A stretch of DNA of 64,000 nucleotides, taken from Microthyrium microscopicum (Eukaryota; Ascomycota; Dothideomycetes; Microthyriales; Microthyriaceae). This document shows, in pieces, positions 2,529 through 27,318 of this stretch. The notes beneath the pieces are model-generated. The model was not told where the DNA came from and made no database searches. It saw only the letters and a list, made by a program, of their open reading frames with translations. How positions within the stretch are numbered: position 1 is the stretch's first letter; the number at the start of each line of letters is the position of its first letter. The position numbers and the translations under genes were made by a program. The stretch spans positions 1,995,345-2,059,344 of the forward strand of contig MU004237.1 of assembly GCA_010405405.1 (NCBI GenBank), in the 5' to 3' direction.

Positions 2529-2530
<2 letters not shown>

Positions 2531-2696
2531 TAATAATACTTACTATAGAAAGTAGAGAAGTATTAAATAAAAAGACAAAAGAGGCTAAGTCTAGAAAGTA
2601 TAGAGAGCACTAGTATATAATAATACTAAAATATAAAGTAGTAGTAATAGATAGAAAGTGTAGTAATTATTTGAAATTTAAAGATTATTAAGGAAA

Positions 2697-3759: not shown

Positions 3760-6020
3760 TTTAATATCTCTACTACTACTTTACTTAGTTAGCAAAAGTA
3801 TAATAAACTACACTTTAAGCTAGATAATAAGAATTCTAATACTTATTTAATTATAAAAGAACTTATTAAAAGGGAACTACTTCCTATTAATATTACTAAG
3901 CCTAGATAGGTTAAAATTATATATACTCTTTATTCTTATAGTTAGATAAGAAATCTAGAAGGTTTCTAAACCTCTAATTATATAGTATATTATAAAGCTA
4001 AATATAAAACTATTATTACTAAAGAAGAGTAAGAAACTAATAAAGAAACTATAAGAGAATACTAAGCTAGAATTAAAGCTAATAGTAATAATCCTAGTAA
4101 TCCTTTTACTATATCTATAGTTAGTAATAAATAAGCTAGAGCTAATACTAGGTTAGATTTTAATTTAGATACTACTTTATATTTAATAGTTAAATTTATA
4201 GTTAAAAATAACCTATCTTTTAACTTATATAGCTCTAATTCTTTTAAAGAACTCCTAAAGTATTATAATTATTATAGTCCTTAAATTAATCATTATAAGC
4301 TTTAAGATCTTCTTTATTCTAGTTACGATAAAGTAAAAGATAAGCTAAAACGTAAATTAAAAGTAGTAGTTTCTAAAAACGATTATTTTACTATAGCTTT
4401 AGACGTATAGATATCTAATAATAATTAGTATATCTTTTTAAGTATAATAATTATCTATACTAATAGTAACGTTAAATTATAGTATAGATTACTAGGATTT
4501 AAAAGATTAACTATTAATTATACTAGAAAATATCTTTATAGTATATTTAAAAGTATTATTAAGTCTTTTAACTTAGATATTAGTCATTTTATTAGTTTTT
4601 TATAGGATAATGCTAGTAATAATAATATATTAATTACTTAGCTAAGAACTAAAAAGAATCTAATAGGTTCTACTAAGGATTTCTATAATATTTATTATAC
4701 TATATATATTATTAATTTAGTTACTAAAGCTATTATTAGATACTTTATAGCTAATTATAATAAGGAAATTAAGACTACTAGAAGTAGAGCTAGTCTTATT
4801 AGTTAATATACTACTTCTACTTAATTAAATACTATTTTAGATACTATAGCTTCTAAAAGTCTAATAAGTAGACTTAAAAAAGTAGTTTACGCTATTAAAT
4901 TTAAGTAAGAATATTAAAAAAACTTTAAATTATCTAGAAAGTTATATCTTAAAAGAAGGATACTAGACAAAGATATTAAAATAACTAAAATACCTATAGA
5001 TAATAATACTAGATAGAATTCTACGTATTATACTCTAAATTATCTTTTTAAACTTAAACCTTATATTAAATATATCTTTACTAATACTAAAGATAAAAAG
5101 TTTAAGAAGTTTATATTTAATAAAGCTAATTAGCTAGTATTAAAGCATTTAAAGAATATTTTAGGCTATTTTAAAACCCCTACTATTATTTTATAAGGGT
5201 AGATTTATACTACAGTTAATTAAACGCTTTTATATATTTATTAATTATTTAAAAATTTAGAAGATTAAATGCTTAAATTTTCTATATCTCTTAATTCTAT
5301 TATATTAGAAGATTATCCTAAGTATAAATACTTTATTAATACTATTAAGAAAGGCCTTAATAAGCTAAAAGAATACTATCCTCGTAAGATTATAAATTAA
5401 GAAGTAGTAGAAAATCTAAAGCCTTTTATTATAGCTTTAATTTTAGACCCTAGATATAAAATAATATACTTTATAAATAATCCTTATAGCTTATTATTTT
5501 ACTATCCTTAGATTTTAATAGACGTTACTAATTTATTTAAAGAAGAGTATAATTTAGCTAAAATAAAACTAAATCCTACTTCTTTAAATTAAGAAAGTAG
5601 TAATTTAGATCCTATTTTAGACGATAATAAAAATACGTTTTTTATTCTTATTACTAATAATAATACTACTACTATTAAAGAAGAGTATATTTATTATTTA
5701 GGATAAGAACGTGAGCATCCTAAAAAACACCCTTTAGATTACTAAGTTAAAAACTAAAATTAATTTCCTATTTTATTTTATTTAGCTAAAAAATACTTAA
5801 TAATACCTAGTACTTCTACTAGTGCTAAAAGTATATTTAGTATTAGAGTAGATATTATTTTAAATAATAGAAATAAACTACTAGCAGAGACTAGTAAAAG
5901 GATTATTTAGCTTAAAAACTAGAAATTAGTAAATATTAATAAGTTTAAAAAATTATTATTATATAAATCTAGAGATGAGGATAGTAGTAAAAGTGAGGTA
6001 GAGAGTAATTATTAATATAG
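3760..6020 (+). mobile_element. hAT-family DNA transposon remnant
   Basis: Plus-strand translation shows order and motifs of fungal hAT transposases. Around 4380-4520 there is an IALDV.IS..N segment followed by YRLLGFKRLT; near 4610 comes DNASNN; and near 5790-5940 comes the C-terminal dimerisation block (LAKKYL.IPSTSTSAKSIFS...NNRNKLLAETSKRII.LKN). Stops repeatedly occupy positions where the family has Trp, as TAG/TAA for TGG, the change expected from RIP. The copy is far from coding. Ends are approximate; I did not find convincing terminal inverted repeats. Confidence 0.75.
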
Positions 6021-6640
6021 TAGAGTTAGTTAGGTTTATCTTTTAGGCGTTAAGGAGTTATAGGTATTAGTTTAAATAGAAAATATAAAAAGATTAGTTA
6101 AAACTAAAATATTATTATTAAAAGTAAAAATAAGTATAAGATTATTAAGTATTAGAGTATAAAGTAGTAGTATAGATTTAAGTTTTATAGTATATAGATT
6201 ATTTAATATAATATAGTAAAAGTAGTTAAAATCCTAATATAAAGAACTTATAAATTTATATAATAATTTAAAGATTTACGTTTAACTTTTAATAGATATT
6301 AATACTTATAGCTAGTTATATTATATTAAAATTTAGAAATCTACTACTTATATTTATTCTTTATAAATTGTATATTAAATTATAGCTTATCTTACTCTAA
6401 TAAGTAAGTTAATTATAAAAATAAAAAAAAACGTATTTAAAATATAACTAGTAATAAGTATATATTTAAGAAAGATAAGTTAGATTATTAGATAGAGTAG
6501 GCTTTAAGGTATATAATAATATATAGTATAGTTTATAGATATTTAGTTTTAGTAGTTATATAAATAGTTTTAAAATAATAATAAAAAATAGTTTAAAGTT
6601 TTACTATATAAAGTAGTATTTTAGGACCTTCTTTAGCTCC
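6021..6640. other. AT-rich degraded DNA, no gene
   Basis: Very AT-rich sequence following the hAT remnant, without an open frame or clear repeat ends. It may hold the 3' untranslated part of the hAT copy. Nothing else is recognised. Confidence 0.5.
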
Positions 6641-8500
6641 TACACGGCTCAATTCGCACTACCTCATCTATTTAATTTAAATAAACCATTGGAATTCCTT
6701 CGTTAACGCTTAGGGATTACTTTTATAAATTTCTAGCTAGACGCCTATACGCACTACGGTGTTATTATGGCTAGAAGAATGGCTAAACTAAACGACTAAA
6801 ATATAGAAGAATGAGACTCTAATTTTAAGAGCTATAAGAGCTTGCTTAATAGTAGCCCTTTAGAACTACTTAGTATGGTTAACGTAGTAAGGATATTTCT
6901 ATCTAGAATATAAAAAGGTATATAAAAAGGATTAGAAATAATTATCTTAAAATAAGTCCTCTATAATACTATAGAGGAGCTTATTAAGCTAAAGGACTAC
7001 GTCCTCTACTAAGAGGAAGAGCCTCTAGTAGCTAAATACCCTACCTTTAAACTTACCTTCCTTAAAACTATCCTTAATTAGCTTAATAAGATTAAAGTAG
7101 TAGTTTAACGTTATCCTATTATATTAGCTCTAAAGCTATATTCTTAGGTAGTAATTACCTCTTATACTAAACTACACGCGAGTAAACTAAAAGGTTATTC
7201 TATTATTCTATAACCTAAGGTAGGACAATATATAGGGACTCCTTTAGAGGTCCTTAAGGAATTTAAAAAGACATTTATAAGTACTATAGGTATATACCCC
7301 CTATAGAGTAGTAATCTTTAAGTTATCTTTAAAGACGCTAAATAGAAGGATTAGGCCTAGTATCTAATTATTAAAGGTGTATAAGTACTTTAGTAGGATT
7401 ATTCTATTAAAGTAGCTAGTATACCCTTAAAGAGTATTAGTAATAGGGTTTATTATAGTAAGAGAGTAGATAATTATAACTTAGGGTTTATTAAGGCCCT
7501 AAATAAGGATAATTAGCACCTTCTTGTTATTACTAGAGTAAGCTAAATTTATAGTAATAAAACGTTAATCTTAGGGAAGAAGAGATTATCCTTTATTATA
7601 TACCTCCTAATAAAGGGTCTTTAGGAGACTACTATAGCTTAAGGGCTAATAATTAAAGGCGTATAGTATAGTTATAAACTCTAGGCTATAACGCTAGTAA
7701 GTATTTATTACTACTAGTATAGTACCTAAAGATATATATAGTCTTCCTATTTAGTAGAAGCTTACTATAGATACTATACGGGTAAGTATAATATATAGGA
7801 TTATAAAATAAAAGATAAAAGCAAATAGTGCTTAAATTATAGTTATAAATATAACTATTAGGATAAATCCTATAGTATTTATAAGAGTATCGCTTTAGTA
7901 GTAGACGCCCTTTAGGTAACCTTATTTAAATATATTATTAACTTATAGAATAGCATAGCTTAATAAGATCATAGTAATATAAACCTACTACTAAAGAATA
8001 AATATATACTTATTACTATACTAAAAGCTAGTCCTATAAAAGGCCTTAAAAGGCCTCTAGCCTTAGCTGTAGTAGGATCTACTCTAGGATAGTAATCTCT
8101 TAGCTTTATGCCTACTCGTCTAGGACCTTTAGGCGTAGCTGTATCTATAACTATGTTAGAAGGGAAGATTGCTATAGCTATTTTAGTAAGTGTCTATAAG
8201 GCTGCTAAAGTAGTTCTAGCGACTTTAGTAGAGTTTAAGGAAGTTAATAAAGAGGTTTAGATAGAGTTAGATAGGTAGGAAGGAGATTAAATAAAGTAGA
8301 AGCGTTTTATAGAACGGCCTATTAATAGCTGCGAGGTTAACGTTCTATAATAGATAAATAGATGCTAAAGCGCCTATAGCGCCCTACTAGGGCAATTAGT
8401 ATAGTTTTATTCCCCTAAGGGTTTCTACTATAAATAGTTAGTATAGTCTATATACGCCTATTAGAGTAGCGTGTTTAGACTCCTTATAGGGTCTAAACGA
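6640..8500 (+). mobile_element. Probable non-LTR (LINE) ORF1 remnant
   Basis: From about 6766 a plus-strand frame begins MARRMAKLND and continues, with many stops, for some 1.6 kb. Near 7750-7880 it carries what look like two CCHC zinc knuckles, with Trp, Cys and Gly positions partly lost to AT mutation (for example K.CLNYSYKYNY.DKSYS). A nucleic-acid-binding ORF1 with tandem zinc knuckles is typical of Tad-like fungal LINEs. No reverse transcriptase follows, so only the 5' part is present, or the rest is missing. A retroviral-type gag origin cannot be ruled out. Confidence 0.45.
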
Positions 8501-9540
8501 ATTGGATAATAAAGAGATTTATATATAAAGTAGTATTTTATATTTTGAATTTAGAATTAAATTAGATAGCAAATATATAGGAAATTCTATATTATTATAT
8601 AGCCCTAAAATAGCTCTATATAATAATATAGGTTTTATATTTTAAGTATTATAACTCTTAGTAGTATTTAAGAAACTTAGAAATAATAAAAAGTTTTTTT
8701 AAATACTAAATAAGCTTAGATAAGATAAAATAGATATCTAGTTTTATATAGAATTTATATATGTTTATAATATAGCTAAGATTTATTTAAAAAACTATAA
8801 TTAAAAGACTTATTTCTACTATTTACTTACTTTTTTATTATAAATATTAATTTTTATTACTAATATATTTAATATATTTTTATTACGTAAGTATTATATA
8901 AAACTAATACTCTAGGTATACTCATTACGTTATAACGAATCGAACTATATATAGGTTTACTTAAAAATAGCAATTTCTAGTATAGTTAAGTTAAATATAG
9001 TATTTTAGTTAACTTTATTCTTTTTATCTATTATATTTATATTCTTAATATCTAATTATTTGTATTAAAACTTATAATAATAGTATTTAGTTCTAATTCT
9101 TTTTATATTCTATTAGGTATAATTCTAGGAGGCTATACTTAAAAAATAATTACTTAAAATTAAAAACTAACTACTCTAGTAATTATTTAAGCTTTATTTT
9201 TTAATAAAAAAAAAAGCTCTAACTTTAAAGTTAAATAACTCTAGAACTAGTTAGCGCCTATTAAAACGAATAATACTATTGTATTCTACGTAAAATACTA
9301 AATCGAATAATGTATTTTTTAGCCTATAATATTACCTAATCTATTTATAAAACTAGTATAGAACTAGTACTAGTATATTAGTAGTATACTATAGTATTAG
9401 TCTAATTAGTATTATAAAATACTAGACTAGTATAGTACTAGTACTAGTATTAGAGTATCCCTAGACTAATTAGTACTAGTAGCTACTTTTAATACTAAAT
9501 ACTAGTCCTACTAGTACTAGTACTAGACTATACTAACTAG
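8501..9540. repeat. AT-rich low-complexity border of the RIP block
   Basis: No coding potential. A short hairpin sits at about 8588-8630 (arms TATATTATTATATAG and its complement). From about 9340 to 9540 the sequence is built of degenerate CTAGTA/TAGTAC units. The AT-rich composition stops at about 9541, where ordinary mixed-composition DNA starts. Confidence 0.6.
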
Positions 9541-11356
9541 TTTGCCAACCTTGCTATGTTCAAGTTTGACAAGTCACGACATTTGACGTGAGGTTGATGT
9601 CAAAGAACTGTAGAGAGGGCGCAAAAGGCGCAAAGGTCGTGGCGTCAAAATGGTTAAATTTCCATCGTTCCAACTTCCAAGCCTGAAGCAAGGCGAAAAA
9701 TAGGCTTCCAAGGGACCAAGGTTAAATCGCCAAGGTTGGAATCATTTGCAGCGTGTTGGAAAAAGACCCAACTTTGCGTGTGCATCTCAGTCACCAACGG
9801 AGCTGCGCGACGTGGCTGGTTTTTCAAAACTTTTCTCCCAACATCGACCCCTTTCAAGGCCAGGGGATATCCAATCACAGCAAATGGCTGACCATATTGT
9901 AGCAGGTGGCTCAGAAGCTCCCCAGATATCCACCAAATCGGGATTCTTTCATCCGGAGCCCCCCTTCGTATTGACGGCCAATGGATCCAAGAATACATCT
10001 TGTCTCTCTTCGTACCAACGACAAATCGAAAGAGTACATCTCGTTCGATCGTTACTGGATAATATTGATTATCCAACGCCCACGGCTTCTGTTTCTCATC
10101 TCATAGGGCTTAGAACTTTGTTTTCTATGATCTTGCTAAGGAAGTTTTGTCCTAGTATGAAAGTATCCAGCTAGTTCTTTATACGGAAACCGTTGGAAAG
10201 GGGAAGTGGAGATGTCAATTTTACGCGTTGCGAACAACCTCCGAGTTGAGGGGTTAAAACTTAGAAATCGATGTTTAGCAATTCTAGGAGTTGAGATCCA
10301 ATCATTCCGCGCTTGGTAATTGATTCCTTTTCAGTTCTGGCTGGTTATGGAATCCACAAGGCGCTTGCCACGAAATCAATGATTCTTTGGAATAATCCCC
10401 TCAGCTCCTGATCTGACTTTCAGAAAGTCATGGACTTCAAATTTGCAACTAGGGGCTCTGGTAGGTCTTGGTTGAAATAGCCGCGTACCCGCGTAGAGAG
10501 GGTCTGTTAGCGGTACCGTAAAGATCAGCGCGTGGAAGAACCCCTGTACCCCTGTCACGGTAGACTTTGAATCCTGTTCCTGTCGGCTAACCACAACTTC
10601 CTGGTTACACTTTTCTTAGCGGTGTTGCATTTGTTCAATCATCCCCGAGAACTGCTTCTTTACATGACGTCTATTCTTGGATGCGTCCCGCCTGCAGATG
10701 TCGTATCCAACAAGACGAGTAACACAGCAGCTTTCGCTTTATACAACAAGATCATCTTATACTATCGTTTGGCAGCATGAAGCGAGCTGTCCGTTCATGG
10801 ACTTTGAGAGAGCGCGTTCAGCGGACTCCAACACTGCTCAGTTGACAGTCAACCATGCAGCTTCCGACGCCACGACAGTTAGCGTGGATTGAGGCAGTGC
10901 TGAGAGTTTCGTGGTCTTTCTGTCTCTAATTCTACACCCCCAATGGGGGCTACGTGCTTGGGCCAGACGAGATGCCTTCATTGCCGTCCTAGACCCCCTA
11001 ATGCAAGGTCCAGACAGGCCTGGCAAGCCTGGTAATGCTCAGAAGTCCCACTGTTGGCTGGGGGGCAGCATCTCTAGGAAACCGTCAAAACCACTGCTCA
11101 GCGTGCTTCGAGGAGCAGTTTGACCTTTTGACCAACTTCACCGTCGCTATTGCTGAATACCCCTCTTCATACAATTCACCCAGGAATTGGTTGAGTATCA
11201 TTCGGTCTTTGACTCCGTTTGATGCAACATATCAGTTTCTAAAGGCCTTTGGCTAGGCCCGTGAATGTGTAGTTGAACATAATACTCTTTTTTAATCATT
11301 CTATTCCTTCATTAACACTTTCTTTAAACATACCTTAATCTTTCTGTTAATTCACC
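9541..11356. other. Intergenic, upstream of the gtb3-like gene
   Basis: About 1.8 kb of normal composition between the RIP block and the large glycosyltransferase gene. Short frames exist on both strands (for example around 9654-10174) but they overlap each other, have unlikely composition and match nothing I know. A TGACGT element lies near 10664. I see no tRNA or other RNA gene. The promoter of the downstream gene is expected in the right half. Confidence 0.5.
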
Positions 11357-14300
11357 ATGATTGAATATCTTGGAATCACGGCTAACAAGCTGTCGTCCAT
11401 GACGACGGGCTGGTGGAACTTTGTAAGGAACTTTGGATGGTTTACTAAATTGAAACAGAGCTGATGGGGGTTTAGATCATTATTGGACTTCTTATTGTCA
11501 CCACAGTCTTTGGAACGTGCTATGTGCTCTTTGCTTCATACAAAGGTGTCAAGAGCCACATAGTTGTAAGTTTGGCCCATTGAATTCTTTGGAATCTTTG
11601 ATTTAACATTCCTGCGATAGAAAAAACGTAATATCGCTTCCGTACCTCCTGCCGTCGCGGCCTACATCGACGAACTCAAACGCTTTGTCAAACCACTACG
11701 CCAGGTCAGGGAAAAGGCCTCGCAAAATCCCAAGACATTTGGTGCTTTCTTGGGAGGAATGTCTTCTCCACCAACTGCACATGAAGGTAGCCTCTTGTCG
11801 AATTGGGACATGATCGTTTTGGATCCTCGCCAAGCTGGTGTTCTCGATGCCGCTACCTACCAATGCACCTCTGCTCATATTCTCGGCCGCCTCGATGTTC
11901 GAACGTTGATGGGATCGGACCGATCCTCCAACCCTGCCGAAATCAACCAATGCTTAGGCGCGATCTCACAGGCTTTGACGAATAACTTCAGACGAGCTGG
12001 CGAGACTGATTCGAAGTTCACGGGTGTTCTTCTCGCAAACTGGACCAACCACTTCACCCCGATTATCTGCAACAGACTTATCGATTATATCCTTGCTCTT
12101 GGTTTTGAGGTATATCTGGAAATTTCGCCACCTGCGTTCCTCAATGAAGAGCAAGTTCAAGAGCTTAATATGAGCCTCGTTCGAGGTGTTGTATGTTATA
12201 ATGGAACAATCCTTCCAGATGGAGAACGCCGCAACTACTTCGAGATGGTTCCCATGATGCCTGCTCTCAGAGCAATGGCCGGACAAGCCGTTATTCGCGA
12301 TGCCTGCATTATGATGTTGGAAGCTCTCGACGACAACGCAGAGGTTCGCCACGCCGTCGTCAAACGTAGCTACGATTGGTGCAGATTCAAGAGTGCTATA
12401 AGCTGGATCGGACCAAACTCTGCTTTAACAAACGCTGAAATCGCCTACCGCAAGACTGTTGTCGGAGAGCCCATGGGAGCCATGATGTGGTTGAAAGAGG
12501 ACATTAATCAGAAACTTCATGAGACCTGGAGACTGAACGATACGATTAGCCAACATCCAACCAGCGACCACTCGATTTACGATACTCTGGAAGCTTTCGT
12601 GCCCGGTCTGAAGTCTAGACTGTCTGTTGTGCTTCCAGACAACAACACTGAGCGACTAACCAATATTGTTGATGACTTCAACTGGACATCCCGCATCAGC
12701 CAGGAACAGAACAACCCATTTCTAGTCTCGCGTCAAGGTCACGACTTTTCTGAGCTTGGTTGCTTTCCCATTGGTATCGAAATCACCCCAAGAGACTTTG
12801 CGACTCTTGTTCAAGGTCAACGTCATCTCGCCAAGCTTAACATGCTCGACCCTATCAAGCCAGAGAAACTCCGCGCTCACGTTGCAAAGATTCAGGCTCT
12901 CTATGATGCCCGGAACACTCTTGGTCTATCTCCCGTAGTATGCGAAGCCGTCGTGGAACTGCTGGAGCTCTGCACCCTTAGCGACGAGGAAATCAATGAG
13001 CACCTTCGAATTTACATTGGCCTGGATTCTGGATTCCGCACTGCCATGGACAAGAAATTCTGGGGACTTTACGAGGCCGATGCCGATACTGGACTTACTG
13101 ATATCTACATCTCTGCAATGGCACCTGATGTTCCTGGCACGATGCTCCACACTTTCCTGTCGAGTCGAGGGGTTTCCCGTGTGCAATCCTTCTTGGCTGA
13201 AATGGCTTTGGCTCACGTACAGGGCAAGTTGGACGAAAGATGGCAAATGTCTCCACGAATGGTTCATGATCTTGGCTGGATTACTCCGGCTGAGAACCTT
13301 CTGTTTATGCAACGACTCACAGTTTCTCCTTGTGCGAGCTGTCCTGAATGCTCTGCTTTGTCAACCAGAGTTCGCGGGTACGCCGAATACCAGTTGCTTG
13401 AAGTTCCTACCATCACCCAGCTAAGAAGACAAAATGCCAACACTTATCTCCGTGGACTGATCACTGTTGAGGAATTGATCAAAAATCGTCTCGACTGGTA
13501 TCGCGAAAAAGGATGCTACCATCCCGAATTCAACACCGCAGTTGCTTTGTTTAAGGAGATTGACGCTCGTTTACCCTTCATCCTTTTGGAACAACACCGC
13601 GACATTGCTACTCAGATTGACAATGTCATGCAGGAAGTTTTGCAAAAAGGCAAGATTGATGCTAGTGCTGATATCTTTGGTCTCGCTCTGTTCTGTGCCT
13701 ACCGCAAGATGGCCCTCCAAGAAGTCATTATGGAAGTTACTGACCGCAATCCTCTACCAAATGGCCAACCGGATCAGGCTGCTTGTTTCGCTGAAATGTT
13801 CTCACTTGGATCCAATTGCGAGGCTTATTTCGACATCTCCCCAAATACTATGGGTCAAATTCTGAATGTCAAAATGCGTGGCTACTACAAGAAGCATCAG
13901 CCTCCCCAGAGAGATGATCTCACTACAGAGTTGCCCACCGCCTATTCGTCGTCTAACATCGATTTGGACCCCAAGGCAGGAGGACCTGAGCTCCCAATGT
14001 ACTACAGAGTCAGCTTCCTGGGTATTTTTGCAGTCCCGGCTCTTGTTGATATTCTGCTTCTTACAACTATCGGACGTGGTCTCTACTTGTCAGCATTCAT
14101 GACTGAGGTGGAGAAATCCACAGCTACCAGCGCTCTTATGACATCTCTCTTCTTGACCGGTGCCATTGGTACCTGGATCAGCTCTGGAGGTAGTTACTAC
14201 CTGCATTCAATGGCCTTCTCTGCGATGAACATGTTTGTCATGACACGATTTGTTGCTGGTGTTGCGTTAGCCTTCCTCATCGGCGGCACAGCTTTCATTG

Positions 14301-17300
14301 TTCTTGCAGCCACCAAAGGCGTCTTGGCTGGTGTTATCTTCTTTCTCTACTTCTGCATGCTTACCATGTACCTGACGATCCTGGCTGCCTTGGCTATCTA
14401 TCAGTTACCCGACTTCATGTTCCAGTCTGGTCGAGTGGTCATCACGATGTGCATTCCTCTTCTGTTCATTTCACCAATTCTTACGCTCTGGGTTGGTCAT
14501 GATATCATTGTCTATCTTTGCATCCTCGCGTCCTTCCTGACTGCCCTGCTGGTTGGTACCAGGAAGGTCGTGGCTCAGTGGGGTACATGGTACATCAGCA
14601 TCAAGACTATGACTGACAAAGAGGTTGTCATATGGTACAAGGACGCCAGAATTCTCGACCCAACGATCCCTGGTCCTGAAGATGACTCTGTAGATGTCGG
14701 CAACACCGCATTCCCTCGTCTGGCTTTACACTCTGCCATTGTCAAGGAGGTCAACAAATCATTCTGGACCAAACCGACCACCGACGTTAAAATCAAGGAA
14801 ATGGCCGAGGCATATCCTGCTACGCAGTTCCTGCTGGGCTGGTACACGCAATACTCTCGAACCAAGATGCCATACGCTTTCAGTCCTACATGGAATCTAC
14901 AGTGCAAGGCTGCCATCGATACTCTCCGCGACATGCAAAAGGGATTGAAACTCCACAACGCATTCATTCACTGGCGTCATTCTGGTGATGAAGTCTGGTG
15001 TGGTGTTCTCTACTTCGTCATTGCTCTTTTGGATAAATGGATCTCATTGCTTTCTGGTGGCTCCATCGTCGGTCTTTCCGCTGCCAATAGTGAGGTTTAT
15101 CGCCTTGCGGTTGGTTTCGGTCTCTCGTACTTCTTGATTGGCGCCGTCTTCCTTGATAGCGTAGCTCAACCTCTCTGGGCAACTGCCAACAAAGCTCTTC
15201 CACAACCGGTCAACTCAATTGAGCGTCTCAAGCAAGTTGCCATCAACGATGCTAAGAATAAGCGCAATCTTTACTGGCGGGAACTTAGCAGGTACTTTTT
15301 CATGCACGTTTGGGGTCTCTCAATCACCGCAGCCTTGATGTGGTCTTTCAACCAGTATCGAGAAGCCGTCATCATGTACCTTGCGTATGTCGGTGCTTAC
15401 AGTGGTCTCCTGTGGTATCAGTACAACCGCATCTTCACAGGTCCTACTGCGCTTAAGGATCTTCTCACTGCTACCTGCATCGCTCTGCCCACCGGTGTTC
15501 TCCTCCGCCATTTCTTGCCAAATTTCGAGTACGGCGCTGTTGTTGGTCTAGGAATTGGTACTTGGACCGCGGCTATTCTTTCTGTCTTCACTTCAAAGAT
15601 TGGTGCTCCAGTATTCCGCAAGGATTCATACGTCCAGGAAACTCCAATCTATCACTGCTGTGGTACGCCAGGTACTCGCACTTTGATGTCACAGGCTGCT
15701 CTTGGCCAGATCTTCGATTCCACCACCACGCTTCCAACTGATCTTCGGTACAGACTCGACCCCGCCAATCATCCAGGTGTTGAAGTCTTGGATAACCTCC
15801 TCTCACACAATAGCCAGAGCTCTAAGAATGTCGTCGAGGCCTTCCGATCTGCTATGCAACATGTTCACAAGACCGCTGATTTGTGGAAGAGAGGCGAGAC
15901 TCTGGTTGACCTTGTCCCAACTCGCCATCTCATTGACCAAGAACAAAAAATGAGAGCCATCAGTCGTCTTTCCGACAACAAACTCCACGTCTATGTCTTT
16001 GTTGGTCTTGATCTCGTTAACGATGAGTGGATTATGGATATTCGCCGCAACTGCAAGGTCATTGCTGAAGCCATCATCCACTGCACTGCCCAGGCTCGTC
16101 TTGGATTTACCAAGGAACATTCTCAATTGATCGAACTGTTGGCCATGAGTGGTATCCAAGATGACGAATTTGCCATCCCAGAGGGTGTCAAGCGCCAATT
16201 GGAGCACTCCTCTAACGAACGTCTCCGCGTCCTCAAGGATTCCGACAAGACTTTCCTTCGCGATCTCCTCCTCGGTCTGGATGTTGAAGTTGGCTGGGAT
16301 AACTTGCCATTGACTGTTCGCTCCTACCTGATCCAACGATGCTGTGGTCTCCCCTGCCGCCTATCTGATGTTCAAATTGACTGGATGAACTCACGTCTTG
16401 AAGAAACGCGCTGTATTGATGCCGATGAGCTTATTGCTCGTAGCAACCTGGGCGCCGTTACTAGTGCCCAGATTACCGCTTTCGCATCTAATTTGGAAGG
16501 AGATCACGATGGTGATCGACCAGAACCTCCGGATTCAATCTACGATGATGTTACCCTTCTCCCCAACGCCATGGAGCCAGACACTCGCATTATTGACCGT
16601 ATCCTCAAGCCTGTCTTCTGGTCGAACAACAAACTCCAGATCGGTATCAAGTTCTGCGTCGTGGCGCTCATCGCTGACCCCGAATTCCAACGCGAACTTG
16701 ACTATGTCATGCAAGGCAAGCCTGCCATCATCCGCTGGCCCATCACATTTGGTCTCAACATCCTTTGGCATTATGTCAAGACTCTTCAAAACATTATCCT
16801 CCCGATCTTCCTGCTCCATGGGCGCGAGAAGGTGCAAAAGGTCTATGATGACATGAAGGGTATGAAGACTGTTATCATGAAGAACAGGATCGCCGTCGAG
16901 AATATTGATGGTCCTACTACTTGCTTCCAATCCTCTCAAGCAGATGGCACTTATCAACTCCACCAGTACAAGGGACACTTTGACGCAAAGCCTCCAGGTA
17001 TCGAAAACATGATGGCTGTCAACACTTACTCCAGCAAGCTTGTCCTCTTGAAGAGAGAGGAATGGGCCAAGTGCAAGCTTGTCAACACTTATGAGTATGA
17101 GTATACTGGCAACGACCCCAACCGCTATCACAAGCTGCCAATCCAGCGTCGCTGTGTTGAAGGAGACCTCAAACGCCAAATCGTCGAGTATGACAACCGT
17201 GGATACATTGAACGCGGCTCCTACTTCAAGGATGACAATCTTGTCGAGTTCAAATTCTGGTACCGCAAGAACGCCAAGTTTGATGATGAGCTTCTTCGAG

Positions 17301-19861
17301 GAGAATTCTCTCTTCCTCATATCAGCATGGACGTTGCTTGGAGTGTCCCTCCAGCCAACAATTCTAAGCGCCTGGACAAGTGGATCCCTTATACCAAGGT
17401 CACTGAAGCTACATTCGTCCAAGGTTCTGACGTCTATCACAGCAAGTGGCTCTACGATCACAAGTTCCATCCTGTCGTCACAACCACACTCAACGGTCAA
17501 GAAATTCCTACTCCTCCTATGATTGAGTTTGATTGGTTTGGTGTTCTGAAAAAGCCAAAGAACTGCAGCTTCATTGCCGATAACCCTGTTTTCTCTTTCA
17601 GCTCTTTGTCGTCTAATGTCTTTTCTCGTGCCCTTGGTTTCAGCAAGCACGTTTACCCCATGTCTACTACCCGTGCCCGATCACATCTCTGGAAGACCTG
17701 GAAAAATGGAAAGGAACTCGATGCTGTAACCACAAGATGGCTCGACGAGATGGCCCTTCGCCGAGAAAAGGTTATGACTCCCTACTGGAGAGCCCGCGAC
17801 TGGGGTTTCCTCCGCCGCGCTGAAGACTACATCCTCGAGCAAGCAGACACTATCATGGCACGGGTTGATCTCGACCCGGATATCAGCTCCTGGACTCACA
17901 TTGCTTATAAGATCTCCGATTTCTTGAGCATGGGTCAAGGTGGTGATTCTCGCATCAACACTCGAACAGTCGAGACCCAAATGCAAGACAGCGACACTTC
18001 TCTCCACGTCCTCGCCATGGACACTGGTACCTGGCCTATTGAGGGTGGTGGTGTCTCTGCCTGCCGTCGTGACATGGTTAACAACCTGGACTCTATCAAA
18101 TGGCACGTTCTCGCTGAGGCTGCTAACGATTATGGTGTACCCAAATTCCAGATGGAGAAGAACGTACAATCGCTTACTCTCCTACCACTTTGGGGTCTTG
18201 ATTTCTTAACACCCACCCATGGTGTGTTCAACAACTGTTTGGACTCTGAAATCGCCCACAGAGAAAATGAAACTCGTGATGCTGATATCATCAAGAAGTT
18301 CATTCCTATTCTGACAACCTTGGTTCGCTGTTCACGTGCGGTCAAGCTTAGCCGCGAGCATATCGTTGAAGCCACCAAGGCTCTCTGCGATCTTAACACA
18401 TACTTCGAGTCCAATCGCCATTGGAGTGATGTCTGGAAGAGCGACATTGTCAAGAAGGTCTGGAGAGAACTCTGGCTCAGCCCCAGCACCGACAACATGG
18501 TTCCCATCTCTGACTGGCTCGACGCTGAATGCCCAACATTAGCCCACATGGACAATGCCTTGGACATGTGGCATCGTTATCTCTTCATCCAGTCTGTACC
18601 CGTTCCTGAGGAGATCCCAAGTGTCTTCCAAGCCTCCCATCATTTCGCCGGTGCCTCTTATGGCGTTGTGTGCAAAGTGAAGCGTGGATGCTCTCTACAC
18701 GTTTGGGATCATTGTATCTCATGGCGAGAAGTCACCGTCTTCTTATCATCTGCCATGTCCTTCGACGCACCTTTCGTCTGCACTGCACTCATCTCACTCT
18801 CGCGAGTCATCGCTGTTCTTCTACTCCATCATGCAGACGTGGTTCTTCCTTGTGCTGATTTCTTCAACCCTGGTTGGGAAGTTGAACTTGGTAGCCAGGA
18901 GAATGTCATCTGCCATCGTCGCACATATAGGCGAAAGATCGATCCCGTTGTCAACGGCATTACCGACATGGAGCGGTTCAAGCCAATTGAGCAGATCAAG
19001 TCCAAGAGACCAACTGCCGTCATGTTGTCTCACGTTCGGTAAGTTTCCTATCCATGTTTTCAAAGGCCATATTTTAACTATCGAACAGTTTCGTCAAGGA
19101 TATCAAGAACGCCATCTTGGCAGCAGATCTAATTTGCAACGTTTGGGGCTTCAAAGACTATCGTCTAGAAATCTACGGTGACATGGAGAGAGCTCCAAGT
19201 TATGCTGTCGAATGTCAAGAAATCATTGCCATCAAAGGTCTACACGACAACGTCCTCCTCAAGGGTCTTGGTAGCCCGATGAAGGTCCTTGAAGACGCTG
19301 TAAGTTATAATTACTTCACTAATCTCGTCACACAACACTAACAGTCTCTAGTGGCTCTTCCTCAACTCCTCCGTCTCTGAAGGTCTTCCACTCGCCATGG
19401 GTGAAGCCGCCTTGACAGGTGTGCCCGTCGTCTGTACCGACGTAGGCGCCTCATTCCGAGTCGTCACCGACCCCGAAACCGGCAAACGCTTCAGTGCCGT
19501 CGTCGCACCCAACGACTCCTTCTCTCTCGCTCGTGCCCAAGTCAACATTCTCGCCATGCTTGACGAATGGAGCGAATATGCCGACGACGAGCCCGGCTAT
19601 CGGCCCAAACTTTCTGTCCACCCCACAGCAGACGAAGTCGAACGATTCACGAAGCGCATGTACGAGAAAGAAGAGCAACGACGACGCCTGGGTAACATGG
19701 GTCGTACCAACGTCTTCAACTCGTTCTCCAGCGACCGCTATCTGCGAGAACACGAGCAGATGCTTTGGATTGCCAAGATGCAGAGCGGCGACTTCAAGGC
19801 TAACGTGGGTAGCAGCTTACCTGTCTCCAGCAGGTCAAGTTGGCTAGAGAAGGATGATTGA
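11357..19861 (+). CDS. gtb3: Giant membrane GT4 glycosyltransferase, Gtb3-like (GAG synthase)
   Basis: Five exons: 11357-11422, 11476-11565, 11621-19038, 19089-19299, 19352-19861; 2764 aa. The start sits in a good context (TTCACCATGA). Residues 23-42 form a membrane anchor. Residues about 97-400 resemble a TIM-barrel, spherulin/glycosidase-like domain (NWDMIVLDPRQAGVLD, TGVLLANW). Multi-pass membrane clusters lie at about 842-1033, 1178-1235 and 1277-1378. The C-terminus (about 2380-2764) is a PelF-like GT4 domain with the EX7E motif (E2605, E2613) in SEGLPLAMGEA. In A. fumigatus Gtb3 is the proposed polymerase and exporter of galactosaminogalactan, using UDP-galactose and UDP-GalNAc at the plasma membrane. 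The Agd3-like gene 5 kb downstream supports this identification. Orthology is inferred from architecture and context, not alignment. Confidence 0.8.
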
Positions 19862-22800
19862 AACATGGACATGGAAAGTTGATCGCTGCGATCATCTCTG
19901 CTTTGGAAGTAACTGGCACGCCTCGCGAAGACGGTGCTTTCTTATACCCCTCGAAATAAACCAGGATCATGTATATTGTATTGTATTGTTAGGCGTATGG
20001 CGATGGGACATGCCCCATCATGGAAACTGTCTATAAACATGTACGGGCTCTTGATTACGATTAAACGAGAAGCTCATAGACAGTTCGGTTCATAATCACT
20101 CATTAGATATATTTTCTTCAAAGTCTAGACACGAAATGTCATTGGTATTACCACACTAGAACTCTTTGTGCTCTCTAACTATTCTCCGATGATATCTCAG
20201 CCTTGTGACACTTGAATCATTGTCCCTTCGCAGCCTTGCATTGAGAATTAGTCATACAAGACAAAATTGTACACACACTGTTGTCGGAGGAACTTGTCAA
20301 GCAATACACTTCAGAATCTGCTCAAGTCGGCAATTTTTAGCTTTAAAACGCTCGTAGTAAGCTTGCTATCAAATGTCGCTGCTGACTCTCAGCCCTACGA
20401 AGTCCAACCGCTTCTTGTGAACAGGTCACACCAATGCGGAGCATTGTCATGGAAGACGGTAGGACAAGAAGAAACTCTTCCAAATCAATCATTGCCAACC
20501 CATTCCTTGCATCACGCCTACCACAGAATCTGATACATTTTGATCTGCACCCCACAAACTCGAGCATTGTACGGCCACCGACGCGGTCATGACCACGAGA
20601 ACAAGGTCAACAATGTGGTCGTGATAATGGGCAAAGATCGCTGGATCACCAAGTTCTCGTCTATCAAAAATAAATCATCCCCACAGTCATACCACCTCGT
20701 ACTCCCTAGTTTCAACCATCGATTGTAACCTCACGAAAAGTACAATCGAAAATAAAGCTTAGCACACGAGTCACACAACATACCCGTCTCGCGAACCAAG
20801 ATTTGGCTCAACCTCCTCCACTAACCCTTCCACAACTCGATCGTTTTTCTCCGCCCCTCTCTGCAGTACCAATTCACTACGTGCCCAAAAGATGGTTCGA
20901 TGCAACACCCAGCGATTCTCTTTCGCCTCCTCAAATTCGTGGTCCTCAACGCGCCCAAGCAGCTCAACTCGGATGTGGCCGTCGAGTAAGAACGCGTGCC
21001 AAAGATGCTTTTGAGGTAAACCAAAAACCGTGGCGTTGCTGGGCTGACAGACCAAACATGATGGCGTTGACGATGTGGCTACTGGGCGTTTCCAGACTCC
21101 ACTGAAGTTGGAAGGACCCCTTTGTACCCCTTTTGAAAATGAAAGGGTCCATGTACAAGTATTGGGGCTGGTAACTTATTTCCTAGGGGTGCACTAAGGG
21201 CTTTGAGCGCGCTTATTTGGTACCAGGGTGCTCCTGACCTAAAAAGGTCGAACGCATGGTTTCTCGGCTGCTGCCGATTAGCGTTCTTTTGAAGGACGCA
21301 CTTTGCGCTGTTGATTGGCTGAGTAGTGCTTGAGGCTTTTGAGGGGCCACAGTGTCGACAGGGGTGTTTTTCTTCGCTGGAAACTGAGTATTGTTGCTTT
21401 TGAGTGGAAATGACAGGTCACCACTACTCCAATTTACACGCCTTTTATTCCCAGCAATACTTCTCGTATTATTTTACTCTTTGCTGCATGGTTCTTGGAG
21501 CTTTGGGGCTTTTGCAAGCTGGAAAAGTCAACATGGCTTTCTTGGCGCTTTGAAAAGCCTTGAGATCAAGCTTTTGGCGGCGGCCACCATGAACACTATT
21601 TTCTCCAATGGCTTGCCCAGAACGACGGGTCAGTGAAGATTTGTCGTGGTCGCCGCTTTTACGAATATGATGTAATAACCTGCGATAACTAATTTTACGC
21701 GTTGACGCGACTGTATAAGGCTCGCGTGGTACTGTTGAAGGCGTTGCAGTTGCATTGTTCAGTCGTAAAGTAGACAGAAGAACACCACAGTAACAAATAT
21801 GAACCTTCAAGTCACAACCCCCCTTTCCAGAAAACGTGAGGTGGCACAGTACTGCTTTCGCTAATGAGACTTATGTCCTTCTAACATTACTAATTAACAA
21901 TTAACCATAATGTTGAACCTTCAGCCTTTGGCACGACTCACAAGAGAAACAGTCAGCACATTATTTCCTCTCCTTCGTACCCAAGGAACTGCATACGAAT
22001 TAAATGCATTACAATTCCAATCACGGTCAATTTATCAATAGTGAATCCTTTAGCATAAGATCGCGCGAACTCGACTTTCATTCAAGGTCTTATCTAGTGC
22101 CTCACTACCGTTCTCCCGAAAGTTGTCCGACACTTGCACTGTAACACAACAACAAGCTCGCCAATCCGACTGTTCGGAATCAACTCCGGAGTAGCAATGT
22201 AAGCATCTAGAGAAGTTTTTAAATTCGGACTCCGGCACACTGGGAAAGATCATGGCGTCCACGCGATGGCATATGGCCTCCTATTCAAGCGTTGATCGAA
22301 ATCTCAAAAGTACCGGCACGATAGAACACCAAGCGAACCCCATATGCCAAGATGCGCTGTGTTTATTCTTATCGAACATAAAGTTGTCGCGTGAAGAGCC
22401 TCATGTCGATCTATCCAATAGATATAAGACAGCGTGACAAACTATACGAGTTTAAAGGGACATCCCTTTCATCCTACCGTTAGCAAAAACGCGTCAAGTG
22501 TTCCACGTTGGCTTTTTGGCTACGGTAACTAGTCCTCACTTGTTATCTTGACCGTTCGCTAAGAATGACAAAAATACGATCAAGTTTTATGCTTCGTTGA
22601 TTGATTTTCAGTGATTGTGGTATTTGGTGATGTCGTTCAGGTTGGATTATATGGAAATGTTGATGCCAGCACATGAATCCTTTTGACATTTGCATATGAG
22701 GAAACATGGTTGTTAGCAGTGCAATTGGGTTATGCAGCTTTTAGTGTACATCCTACAGCGAGTGAATTTTGCAGATAGAACAAAGTAACAAAAGAATAGA

Positions 22801-23314
22801 CGTATGAGGTGCATGATTAGTGTTGCCTATTGGTAGGATTTAGGTACAAGATCACCAATTACCAGCTGCGAACGTGGAGTACTTATTTTTAGGATTTAGC
22901 ATACATTCAAGCTTCTTAGTATCTGCATTACTATGCAAGACTCTGCAGGGGTAAATGAAAGGATTATACATGGCCCCTCAAACATTGCGCTACTGTAGCC
23001 AAGGTTCAGTATGTACAACAGTACAACTAGTGAGTTTCTCATTGGTAAGTACACTGATCAAGATCAGGATCACAGCAACAGCAACGCAATGAAGAGCATG
23101 ATCATAGTCACAATTCAGATGCGAAAAATGCTAGGGACGAAAGAAACGAGCCATGAATGGGAGGAAGTAGGCAACAAGCCATCTCTCGAAGTTGTAAATT
23201 ACAAGTACCACTAATGTCTATTTTGTGCAGGACGTAGTTGACGATGCTGCTTTGAAGCAATTTTCCCAATTGTGCGCCGGAGCCATGTTCTGAAATCCAA
23301 ACTTTCTTCACTGC
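19862..23314. other. Intergenic, 3.4 kb, no gene recognised
   Basis: Long gap between the gtb3-like gene and the small secreted protein gene. Frames of 60-100 codons occur on both strands (for example 20803-21105 and 22050-22437) but lack splice-supported extensions or familiar motifs. The 3' UTR of the upstream gene is expected in the first few hundred bases and that of the secreted-protein gene in the last few hundred. No tRNA, transposon or clear repeat was seen. Confidence 0.5.
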
Positions 23315-23680
23315 TTAACAAGGCTATGAATGGTTAGTACTTGATCGATAAGATTCTTTGGTAGGAGGGACTGACAATTGGCGATGGGCAGACTGGGTTC
23401 TTGAGATAGCAAGCTTCAGCAGCATTGGCCTTGAATGCACATTGCTAACAAAAAGGTTAGTAGATTTCGCAGACACAAAGTCTGGAGAACTTACGGCATT
23501 GGCGTTCAAGAATGGAGGAACGGTCACTGCAGGGCAGTCGCATGGAGTGATTTGAGGAGGAATGACCTCTGTGAGAGTGGCATTTCCAGCAGTGAGTGTG
23601 CCGTTCTCAGCACGCTTCATATTTTGATGTCCAGCGCAAGCAGCCGCGAAGGTGGCAAAGGCGAGTAGGACGAGCTTCAT
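23315..23680 (-). CDS. Small secreted Cys-rich protein with Kex2 site
   Basis: Three exons on the minus strand: 23680-23495, 23444-23376 and 23323-23315; 87 aa. The second intron has a textbook TACTAAC branch site before CATTCATAG, and both introns keep frame. Residues 1-17 (MKLVLLAFATFAAACAG) are a signal peptide. A Lys-Arg pair at 21-22 fits cleavage by Kex2. The mature part of about 65 aa has two N-glycosylation sequons (NGT, NAT) and six Cys, starting with a CDC pair and ending at the last residue (PIPC), enough for three disulfides. The last exon codes only Pro-Cys, so the sixth Cys depends on splicing. No family recognised; size and Cys content suit an effector, antimicrobial peptide or wall protein. 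Confidence 0.75.
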
Positions 23681-25001
23681 GATTGCTGAGTTTGAAAGTA
23701 GATGAAAGATTAATAGTAGTATAGCGAATGAAAGAAGATATTAAATCAAAGAGTGACTGTAGAAGATTCAGGCAAGGTTCTCCGGAATAATCGGGACAGA
23801 GCAGAAGAGATGGAGTGGAAAAGAGCGAGATGTTTAAGAGAATTGGCGCAGTGGACTCGTCAGCTCAGCACCGCCTCTAGAACGAGGAACTGACAATAGC
23901 GCGTAGCGAAGAACGGCGTAGAAGCGGAGCTGGAAGGCACTTTAGTGGAGCGAAAAGGACTCGACTCGTCAAAGCCAGGCACAACACCAGCCAAAGCAGC
24001 CCAAAAGTTGTGAGTCGAAAACAAGACCTTGGATAATACGAGGGGGGCGATATATGTACCCCTGGCACTAAGCCTAAAAGGAATACGGTCATATTGCTGA
24101 ACACGCGATGCCCCCAACTTCATCGCTGTTTTCCTGGTCCCGCCTGCTGTAGGGCCATTTCGCCTCAACCTGTCCATCCCTCTGGACCAGGCAGATCCAG
24201 GAGCATTTAGGCCAGGAATAAGGTTACCAGTGATGAGATCCCAGGATTGCCCCTCGACGATATGCGTAACTTCAGTCCAGACAACCTGCTAGCTCACAGC
24301 ACGATCTGATGTTGTGTCAAAACTCTGCATCAAACTGCAGATACATCAATACGATTCAATAATAACATGGTGACGACAAGGCATTTCTGCACTTTTGTTG
24401 GACTCGCGAAACTCCACTACGGTGGAAACAACCGGTAGGTAGTTTTGTTTAGAGCCTGTCAAAAGTCGCTTGTTTTCCTAAATTTAACCCCTTTACGCCA
24501 CAACCGACCGACCAATGCTAGCATGACATTGGTACGATGCTGTCTGAGCCTGTCTCTCCTTCAGCCATCTTTTGACAGCATCTTTTGATAACTCTGCCCA
24601 CATCCGTCTTTCCCGACCTGGCGCCATTTTGCAGTGGAGCCCCTACTGCTCGCATTTCCCGCCCCAGCAGCCTCACATCCACAGCTCTTGACCTTTACGC
24701 TGTGTTTGGTGGAGGTGAACGAGCTTTCGCTTAGCCCAAAGCGGTCCAACAAAGCCGAGACGCGCCGTTCATCGTTCTCTCTGGTGCCGTGTGCTCACTT
24801 TTCCAGAAATGTAAAAAGCCTGGGCTTGCCTTCCGTACCAAGCTTTTCTTGTCGGTCTCTCACGTTATGTGGTCTTGATTAAACTACACCACAAGCCCGC
24901 CTTTCTCTTTCTTCGTCACTCGTTGTTGACATAGTTCAACAGTCACTCGCTACGACTTCATATTCTTTTTTCAACTTTCATTAATACTAATATTTGACAT
25001 C
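23681..25001. promoter_or_regulatory. Shared upstream region of the secreted protein and agd3-like genes
   Basis: About 1.3 kb between the divergent starts of the small secreted protein gene (leftwards) and the Agd3-like gene (rightwards). The 100 bp before the Agd3-like start are pyrimidine-rich, as is common for fungal promoters and 5' leaders. No gene is seen. Head-to-head arrangement makes shared control possible, but no specific operator is identified. Confidence 0.4.
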
Positions 25002-27318
25002 ATGGTGCGCTTGTTCAAGGCCTTGGCCGCTCTTTTCGTCTCGTCCGTCGCGGCGCAGACATGCACAAACGCAACCACAGGACCAAGAAATGTCCAACAA
25101 ACAGTTCTGGTCTTCTCCATGGACGCATACTCAACTTACACTGCCACATCTGGTCTTAATGCCTACGGTATCCCATACCAAGTTGTGGTTGTCCCACAAG
25201 CAGGAATCACACTGCCAACCCTCAACTCATCACTACTTCAAGGCAACTATGGGTCCATCGTTGTTATGAACGAACTTTCATATGATTACGGTGGAACAGT
25301 CGGCTGGCAAAGCGCCCTCACAACTGATCAATGGGCTACTCTTTTCGCGTATCAAGTCGATTTCGGTGTTCGCATGGTGCGCATCAACGCCTATCCAACT
25401 ACTGAATTTGGTACTTGCAAACTTCCGTTCCACAAATAATTACTAACCACGAAAGGTGTTCAAACTGTAATTGATGGACAAGGTTGCTGTAACGCAGGAG
25501 TTGAACAACTCATGTACTTCACCGATACCAGTGCATTCCCAACTGCTGGTCTCTTGACGTAAGAAACATTCATCATGAGATGATATTGACTAACACTTCA
25601 TAGTGGCGCTACTGCTGGAGTTAGCACTCTTGGCAACTGGCATTATCCCGCTACAATTACCAACACAACATTGGCGAAACAAGTCGCAGCATTTGGCGCA
25701 AGTACAGATAACATGTTCAGCGCCGCGTCTACTGCTGCCGTCATAAACGACTTTGGCAACCGTCAACAAATGGTTTTCTTCATTGGTTGGGCTACTGATT
25801 GGTCTGAAACCTCCAACTTCTTGCAGCACTCTTTCATTCATTGGATGACCCGCGGCATGTGTAAGTAAAATTGAAACCGCTTGATAGTATCTCGACCTAA
25901 CTTTCAACAGATTCTGGGTTCCGTCGTGTGTTGTTCAACACTCAAATTGATGACATGCATTTAACCACCCAGCTGTACCAGAGCGACATCAACTTCCGCC
26001 TATCAGTTGCTGATTTGAACGGAATTGTAGCATGGCAAAAGAACCTTCAAGGTCGTCTTCCACTGGGTTCCAACTGGACTATTGAGATTGGCCACAATGG
26101 TAACGGCGACATTGACGTTTCAACCAATCAATACGATACTGCAAATCCCTCGAACTGCAACCCAGATACTGCCATTTACTATGATGACCAGCCAGATGTC
26201 ACGCCTGCCACTCTTGAGTTTGTCAAGCCTCTAGGAACTGGTCGCACGTGGTGGCCATCTACCCCAACCAGCTTCCAATGGACTCTGAAATGTGCGCTGA
26301 ACGATCCTATGGCTACCTGGTTCAACGTTGCCGCCAACCGTGATCAATTCATGCACATTTCCCATACCTTCACTCACTTGAACTTGGACAACTCAACCTA
26401 TGCTGATACCTCCAAGGAGATTTCATGGAACGTTGACTGGCTGAAGCTTGTTGGCATCTACAACGCCCTACACTTCTCGCCAAACGGTATCATTCCCCCA
26501 GCCATCACTGGTCTTCACAATGGTGACGCTATTCAAGCCTGGATGGACAACGGTATTACCCGCGTCGTTGGTGACAATACTCGCCCAATCCTCACGAACC
26601 CTATCAACGAGTACTGGCCATTGATCACCAATACAACCACCAATGGCCACGCTGGTCTTGTCGTCATGCCTCGTTGGTCGACCACGATCTTCTACGACTG
26701 CAACAACCAGACTTGCACTACCAACGAATGGATCCAGACATCCGCTGGTGCAGGTGGTTTCACTGATCTTCTTGCTGCCGCCAAGAACGAGCACGGCCGT
26801 CACGTCTTTGCTCTTCACCAAGATCCCTACATGTTCCACCAGGCCAACTTGATGAATGAGAACGCTCCAAGCTTCACTGTTGGCTCCCAAACTGGCAAGC
26901 TCTCTCTCATGTCCATCTGGACCGAGACCATCCTTCAAGAGGTCTACCGTCTAGTCAACTGGCCCATCCTCACCATCAAGCACGACGATCTCGCCACCGT
27001 CTTCCTCAACCGCATGGCTCGCGAGTAAGTACCTCTTATCCCATTTTCATCCAGAACACTTTGCTAACGAACCCTTCCAGCCAATGTGGATACAATCTTG
27101 CGTGGCAACACGACAGCACCAACACCCACATTATCAGCGCCGTCCTCACCTCCAACGGCAACACCTGCAGTGCGCCTGTACCTGTCACATTCCCAGGTCC
27201 AGCCACAGCCAGCGTAGCCTCAACAGCCGAGCAGATCGGTAACGATCCCTTGACACTCTGGGTCAAGCTTACCGGATCACCAATCACGTTCACGCTAACA
27301 ACACCCATTGCGATCTAA
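25002..27318 (+). CDS. agd3: Secreted polysaccharide deacetylase, Agd3-like (CE18)
   Basis: Five exons: 25002-25410, 25456-25558, 25604-25860, 25911-27024, 27081-27318; 706 aa. Residues 1-19 are a signal peptide (MVRLFKALAALFVSSVAAQ). The N-terminal half matches the carbohydrate-binding part seen in Agd3 (CBM87 type). The central region carries the metal and catalytic motif H405-ISH-TFTH412 followed by LNLDN, and later GLHNGDAIQAWMDNG and VVGDNTRP, all characteristic of the CE18 group. In A. fumigatus Agd3 partly deacetylates N-acetylgalactosamine in secreted galactosaminogalactan, giving the polymer positive charge and adhesiveness. Key residues look intact, so the gene appears functional. 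Several N-glycosylation sequons fit a secreted protein. Assignment rests on motif recognition. Confidence 0.8.

What the first reader, a model, noticed from the sequence alone, without database searches (positions are those of the whole stretch)
11357..27318. Galactosaminogalactan-type gene pair (gtb3-like and agd3-like) beside a RIP block
The sequence shows a giant multi-pass GT4 protein and, 5.1 kb away on the same strand, a secreted CE18-type deacetylase. In A. fumigatus both belong to the five-gene GAG cluster with uge3, sph3 and ega3. Here polymerase and deacetylase stay together while the other three are not seen to the right, and to the left lies decayed repeat DNA. This may be a split or reduced cluster, making a cationic adhesive exopolysaccharide from dispersed genes.
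Basis: partly seen in the sequence, partly recalled or inferred. Interest (0 to 1): 0.75.

Follow-up and report, generated by a model that had tools for sequence, protein, structure and literature searches.

The report
Second galactosaminogalactan cluster, split by repeats
A leaf-litter fungus, Microthyrium microscopicum, carries two very different sets of genes that look able to make the sticky sugar polymer galactosaminogalactan; the set in this window is not dispersed but cut in two by a block of mutated repeats, and its polymer-making enzyme starts with a domain predicted to be shaped like the enzymes that cut this polymer.

Summary
The gene pair is real. The window lies on contig C8 of a genome whose proteins are annotated as Microthyrium microscopicum; both gene models equal annotated proteins letter for letter. 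The "split or reduced, dispersed" reading fails: a Uge3-type epimerase and two spherulin-4 (Sph3-type) genes lie 8.5-14.3 kb left of the window, across a 17.4 kb RIP-mutated AT block. Only ega3 is missing.

A second, canonical five-gene cluster lies on C9, with a synthase only 41% identical. A tree of 227 synthases splits into 113 and 114 (support 100). I call C9 type I and C8 type II. Deacetylases on the same contig as a synthase sort the same way, 15 of 15, one pair left out. The C8 synthase is a Gtb3 paralogue, probably not the Gtb3 orthologue.

The parts
11357..19861 (+). type II GAG synthase gene (Gtb3 family), 5 exons, 2764 aa
   Evidence: gene model; identical to P0121; GT4 domains; trees
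11714..12469 (+). part of the synthase gene: predicted TIM barrel (residues about 84-335) shaped like GH191/PelA/Ega3, without the catalytic Asp
   Evidence: AlphaFold models; fold matches; residue counts
18968..19552 (+). part of the synthase gene (with two introns): C-terminal GT4 catalytic domain, PelF-like
   Evidence: Pfam residues 2502-2662; NF038011 PelF E 5.8e-20, below its cut-off
25002..27318 (+). Agd3-type CE18 deacetylase gene, 5 exons, 706 aa
23315..23680 (-). putative small secreted cysteine-rich protein gene between synthase and deacetylase (my splice, 87 aa); no other copy found in the genome
   Evidence: sequence; search
1..9601 (.). right part of the RIP-mutated AT-rich repeat block (C8:1987545-2004945, starting 7.8 kb left of the window) that separates the two halves of the cluster. 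Beyond it, outside the window: sphB C8:1985932-1986849 (+), sphA about C8:1984430-1985510 (+), epimerase C8:1981011-1982339 (-)
   Evidence: block; epimerase; sph genes

Best explanation
This is a second (type II) galactosaminogalactan (GAG) cluster: epimerase - sphA - sphB - [17.4 kb RIP block] - synthase - small secreted protein - deacetylase. All five enzyme genes are open; only an ega3 is lacking, and other GH114 genes exist elsewhere in the genome. Proposed working, by analogy: the epimerase makes UDP-Gal and UDP-GalNAc; the PelF-like GT4 end of the synthase polymerises them on the cytosolic side and its membrane part passes the chain out; an anchored Sph3-type hydrolase trims acetylated chain; the secreted Agd3-type enzyme removes acetyl groups and makes the polymer cationic and sticky. 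Shown here: gene content, open frames, conserved Agd3 catalytic residues, two ancient synthase lineages, barrel fold by prediction. Inferred: substrate, product, topology, and that the repeats entered after the cluster had formed.
For: Gene content around the block. The catalytic and CBM residues of A. fumigatus Agd3 named in the passages of PMC7229062 that I saw (D377, D378, H510, H514, R613, Y620, M666, H668, W292, W344) align to the same residue in the C8 protein (alignment, numbering mapped by hand). The C8 epimerase is 49% identical to the C9 one and 37% to a third, on C3; the three A. fumigatus epimerases show the same pattern, 58% and 37-39% (PMC5598270 table). C8 and C9 epimerases have Cys, the C3 one Leu, where by eye human GALE has Cys307 (position and role recalled). 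Flanking genes are not shared between C8 and C9, so this is no recent segment copy. Elsewhere a type II synthase and an Agd3 carry near-neighbour locus tags: LTR50_006855/006858, LZ554_006477/006475, LTR37_004462/004465. Eight named Sordariomycetes are in type II (class recalled); GAG clusters have been shown genetically to make GAG in N. crassa, M. robertsii and V. dahliae, though I could not place their synthases.
Against: No expression, biochemistry or polymer data. ega3 is absent. sphB lacks any export signal. I could not obtain the N. crassa, M. robertsii or V. dahliae synthase sequences, so that type II enzymes make GAG is not tested. MrGtb is reported 28% identical to Gtb3 (PMC8224951); my type II Metarhizium anisopliae protein is 38.8% identical over the full length to the A. 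fumigatus type I protein and 50.9% to the type II one, so it may not be the same gene. Which A. fumigatus protein is Afu3g07860 rests on inference.
Confidence: 0.82

Rival explanations
1. One reading: a reduced cluster, with uge3, sph3 and ega3 dispersed or lost.
For: ega3 is not on C8, and GH114 genes lie elsewhere in the genome.
Against: Epimerase and two sph genes are next to the pair, across the RIP block; no N in the stretch.
Confidence: 0.05
2. A decaying relic: type I on C9 makes all the GAG, and the type II cluster is being destroyed by repeats and RIP.
For: AT blocks on both sides of the C8 left half (1960.5-1966.4 kb and 1987.5-2004.9 kb); ega3 missing; full cluster on C9.
Against: Synthase and deacetylase are open over 2764 and 706 codons, catalytic residues kept, no RIP signature in them (composite -0.75 and -0.63 against +1.42 in the block).
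Confidence: 0.12
3. The type II cluster makes a related but different polymer (for example another Gal/GalNAc ratio or linkage), not GAG.
For: Synthases 41% identical; deacetylases co-sort with synthase type, as if fitted to different chains; both kinds occur in 11 named species of my selected 61-row tree.
Against: Same enzyme set, same PelF-like GT4 and same Agd3 catalytic and CBM residues.
Confidence: 0.3

Closest known systems
Aspergillus fumigatus GAG cluster gtb3-agd3-ega3-sph3-uge3 (Afu3g07860-07910; PMC4817252)
   Same: Epimerase, GH135, synthase and CE18 deacetylase genes together; meets the selection rule of that paper (GT, epimerase, deacetylase and either hydrolase or spherulin)
   Different: ega3 absent, sph doubled, 17.4 kb RIP block inside, synthase by inference of the other lineage
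Microthyrium C9 cluster (epimerase, sph, ega3, agd3, synthase; 995.7-1017.1 kb)
   Same: Same families, divergent epimerase/sph pair at the left
   Different: All five genes within 22 kb; synthase 41%, deacetylase 51%, epimerase 49% identical to C8
A. fumigatus uge4 (Afu4g14090) and glycosyl transferase Afu4g14070
   Same: A further epimerase, with a locus number close to a glycosyl transferase; candidate counterpart of the C8 cluster
   Different: Not tested: no sequence of either was available, and Afu8g02020 is a second candidate
Bacterial Pel system (PelA hydrolase-deacetylase, PelF GT4)
   Different: One fungal chain, below the PelF cut-off; barrel without the catalytic Asp

Membership tests
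GAG biosynthetic cluster (rule of PMC4817252) | GT, epimerase, deacetylase and either hydrolase or spherulin-like gene at one locus | tested here: met
   19.85 kb between sphB and the synthase
GAG biosynthetic cluster (five-gene form) | ega3 (GH114) in the cluster | tested here: not met
   no PF03537 match on C8 among 23 in the genome; no hit of 11 own GAG-type proteins in the block at E<=1
Agd3 / CE18 | CBM87, deacetylase and C-terminal domains with the D-D, HxxxH, R and M-F-H motifs | tested here: met
Gtb3 orthologue of A. fumigatus | Groups with the synthase of the canonical Aspergillus cluster | tested here: inconclusive
   C8 falls in the other lineage if the canonical gene is type I, which is inferred: FE257_000435/000436 and Plec18167_006726/006727 pair Agd3 with type I, and AN8369 (type II) lies far by locus number from ugeB AN2951
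Uge3-type bifunctional epimerase | galE family above cut-off and Uge3/4 rather than Uge5 group | tested here: met
   TIGR01179 315.7 bits, cut-off 262.3; group inferred from identities inside this genome
Uge3-type bifunctional epimerase | activity on both UDP-Glc and UDP-GlcNAc | not testable with these tools
   needs enzyme assay
Sph3 / GH135 | Spherulin4 domain related to solved Sph3 | tested here: met
   5d6t/5c5g E 3e-49 (sphA) and 2e-56 to 3e-56 (sphB)
PelF equivalog NF038011 | score at or above 100 bits | tested here: not met
   71.8 bits (C8) and 66.5 bits (C9), best family for both
GH114/GH166/GH191 galactosaminidase (synthase N-terminal barrel) | fold | tested here: met
GH114/GH166/GH191 galactosaminidase (synthase N-terminal barrel) | catalytic Asp after strand 4 and Glu after strand 6 | tested here: not met
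   position 191: Ala 24, Thr 1, Ser 1, Gly 1, Asp 0 of 27 (one gap); positions 246-248 N, G/A, T/S. Positions assigned by strand order and the motif seen in 9ep5, not by a residue-level superposition
RIP-affected repeat | AT-rich repeated DNA with RIP dinucleotide signature | tested here: met
   index thresholds recalled

The most novel reading that the evidence does not exclude
Fungal GAG synthases are single-chain relatives of the Pel machine: a barrel of the PelA/Ega3 fold that has lost its nucleophile, on the cytosolic side, holds the growing chain beside a PelF-like transferase and feeds it into the membrane part. Two such synthases, each with its own matched deacetylase, have coexisted since before the Pezizomycotina classes split, so many moulds may make two distinct cationic polymers.
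Probability: 0.35. Interest if true: 0.75.

Novelty: new variant of a known kind. Interest (0 to 1): 0.6.

Why it matters
GAG is the main adhesive of several mould biofilms and is usually treated as one cluster making one polymer. Two ancient lineages of synthase with co-sorting deacetylases, both held by A. fumigatus and others, would mean that single-mutant phenotypes may have been read against a hidden second system. A degenerate galactosaminidase barrel inside the synthase would give a first structural idea of how the chain is handled and a clear set of residues to test. I found neither point in the listings and passages that my searches returned, which cover only open-licence papers.

Tried and rejected
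1) ega3 relic inside the RIP block: tblastn of 11 own proteins, none at E<=1. 2) C8 and C9 as a recent segmental copy: of 256 stop-to-stop frames of at least 80 aa from the C8 region, all matches at E<=1e-6 in 80 kb of C9 fell on GAG genes. 3) Sequence-level link between the synthase barrel and GH114 or GH135: hhalign probability 0.3% and 0.2%. The template profiles were thin and the format switch may have been wrong, so this is weak, but it is a negative result: the link rests on predicted structure alone. Profile searches of solved structures found GT4 chains and, up to E 10, no galactosaminidase. 4) The whole ectodomain model gave no Foldseek match at or under 1e-3, and its first rows were lactate oxidases. 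The isolated domain put GH191 entries first, but PelA and Ega3 are not among the 50 Foldseek rows shown and 31 chains reach 1e-3, most of them other TIM barrels; PelA and Ega3 come out only in the second aligner. 5) An outward-facing barrel was my first guess; K+R counts after the first membrane segment exceed those before it in 23 of 24 synthases (4 of 28 had no clear segment), which favours the cytosolic side. Membrane segment counts from hydropathy were too noisy to decide. N-glycosylation sequon density in the ectodomain region (0.53 per 100 aa) is near that of the GT4 region (0.58) and below that of secreted Agd3 (0.95). 6) A related small secreted protein in the C9 region: best tblastn E 0.026, not convincing. 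7) Sph domain at the end of a type II synthase in Naganishia P0217: may be a merged gene model, not used. 8) In the deacetylase tree (51 rows: 50 chosen from the 120 listed, and the C9 gene) one same-contig pair was left out: P0003, which is the C9:755 kb gene, shares a contig with the C9 synthase but lies about 250 kb from it; had it been counted as type I it would have broken the 15 of 15. Of the 15, C8 and C9 are known by coordinates, five by locus tags at most three apart, one (Taxawa) shares a contig but is 70 tags apart, and seven share only a contig length. 9) A literature search on GAG in Dothideomycetes and related plant pathogens was uninformative; a search for M. microscopicum and genome listed four papers, none on its GAG genes by title.
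Full report
WHERE AND WHAT. The window is G000:C8:1995345-2059344 of a 36.9 Mb, 20-contig assembly. Both gene models equal, letter for letter, proteins annotated as Microthyrium microscopicum, and C8 has the same length as the contig of those records. The synthase (five exons, 2764 aa) and the deacetylase (five exons, 706 aa) are open and carry the expected domains. The C8 deacetylase aligns over residues 30-706 with solved Agd3 6nwz (E 8e-242), and every catalytic and binding residue that PMC7229062 names in the passages I saw and that I mapped aligns to the same residue (ten residues, mapped by hand).

THE CLUSTER IS INTERRUPTED, NOT DISPERSED. Whole-genome family searches put a galE-type epimerase at C8:1981029-1982177 and two spherulin-4 genes at C8:1984430-1986849. 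In window terms they lie 13.0-14.3 kb (epimerase), 9.8-10.9 kb (sphA) and 8.5-9.4 kb (sphB) left of base 1. From the stop of sphB to the ATG of the synthase are 19.85 kb, of which about 17.4 kb have GC near 0.26 and a strong RIP signature; the flanking segments have none. A 4 kb piece of the block has 91-94% copies on C12, C1 and C5 and many weaker matches (44 in all, its own place included). The stretch holds no N. Further left come an HET-domain gene, NUP120 and a Rad51-domain gene; right of the deacetylase a CoA-transferase gene, so the cluster limits look clear. Of the five GAG genes only ega3 is missing from C8; of 23 GH114 matches in the genome none is on C8.

A SECOND CLUSTER. C9 holds epimerase, sph, ega3, agd3 and synthase between 995.7 and 1017.1 kb, also beside an AT block (1019.2-1031.4 kb). 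C9 here is 2,166,261 bases while the annotated contig of its synthase is given as 2,184,735; I did not explain this, the synthase itself is the same. The synthase search found two synthases in the genome; there are five Agd3-type loci and three main galE-type epimerases. C8 against C9: synthase 41%, deacetylase 51%, epimerase 49%, spherulins 33-37%. Flanks are not shared.

TWO ANCIENT LINEAGES. Searches with each synthase (294 and 423 hits, the best 120 of each listed) gave 234 different proteins; the 227 longer than 2300 aa went into a FastTree tree that falls into 113 and 114 with support 100, C8 in one and C9 in the other. A 61-row tree that I selected shows the same. In it 11 named species have both types, among them A. 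fumigatus (P0156, P0327); the two can come from different strains, and Drepanopeziza brunnea would be a twelfth across two formae speciales. In type I, C9 groups with Tothia, Venturia and Trichodelitschia, as expected for vertical descent; in type II the Naganishia basidiomycetes sit among Dothideomycetes (classes recalled), which suggests transfer. C8 itself is not firmly placed inside type II. Deacetylases on the contig of a type I synthase (7) and of a type II synthase (8) are separated by one branch (SH-aLRT 97; one change for 15 rows); the choice of rows and the one left out are told under Tried and rejected.

WHICH ONE IS GTB3? By inference type I: in A. nanangensis and Paecilomyces lecythidis an Agd3 and a type I synthase have consecutive locus tags, and A. 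nidulans AN8369 is type II whereas its Uge3-like gene is AN2951. So C8 is best called a Gtb3 paralogue. A. fumigatus has a further epimerase uge4 (Afu4g14090) and a glycosyl transferase Afu4g14070, a possible counterpart of C8; the link is a lead, and Afu8g02020 is another candidate.

PAPERS. Passages or sections seen: PMC4817252, PMC8224951, PMC11356417, PMC13245733, PMC7229062, PMC12054363, PMC5598270, PMC6948819, PMC6086310, PMC2526178, PMC9030451; none read whole. PMC12054363 treats Gtb3 as an integral membrane transferase near Sph3; the passages shown do not mention a barrel in it. Searches for a second GAG cluster or a synthase hydrolase domain showed none in their listings.

LIMITS. No expression or chemistry. 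Gene models by splice rules; two are confirmed by annotated proteins, the others (epimerases, spherulins, C9 agd3 and ega3, small secreted protein) are mine. No fungal genome other than this one could be opened, so gene order elsewhere rests on locus tags and contig lengths. Barrel: prediction only, no sequence-level support.

VERDICT. The gene pair is confirmed, its interpretation corrected: a second GAG cluster with open genes, cut by a RIP block, in a genome with a canonical one. Ordinary in kind, with two points worth testing: two co-sorting lineages, and a degenerate galactosaminidase barrel in the synthase.

Noticed in passing
C9:755522-756641 (protein P0003): An Agd3-type deacetylase fused to a chitin-binding type-1 domain, 61% identical to the C8 deacetylase and the closest of the own-genome ones compared.
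   Followed up: partly
window 23315-23680 (-): Putative small secreted cysteine-rich protein gene inside the cluster, no other copy found in the genome; N. crassa also has a small signal-peptide gene in its GAG cluster.
   Followed up: partly
C9:1019201-1031401: The canonical cluster on C9 also abuts an AT-rich RIP-like block, next to its synthase.
   Followed up: no
protein P0217 (Naganishia vaughanmartiniae): Type II synthase with a spherulin-4 domain at residues 2838-3054, closest to sphB (46%); fusion or merged gene model.
   Followed up: partly
sphB, C8:1985932-1986849 (left of the window): GH135 gene without signal or anchor in my model, only about 0.4 kb after sphA; location of the enzyme unclear.
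   Followed up: partly
L040:6698-8311 (-), C8:1977042-1978655: HET-domain (heterokaryon incompatibility) gene beside the cluster.
   Followed up: no
window 2656-3055: Stretch of the repeat element that matches itself in inverted orientation (79%), i.e. palindromic.
   Followed up: no
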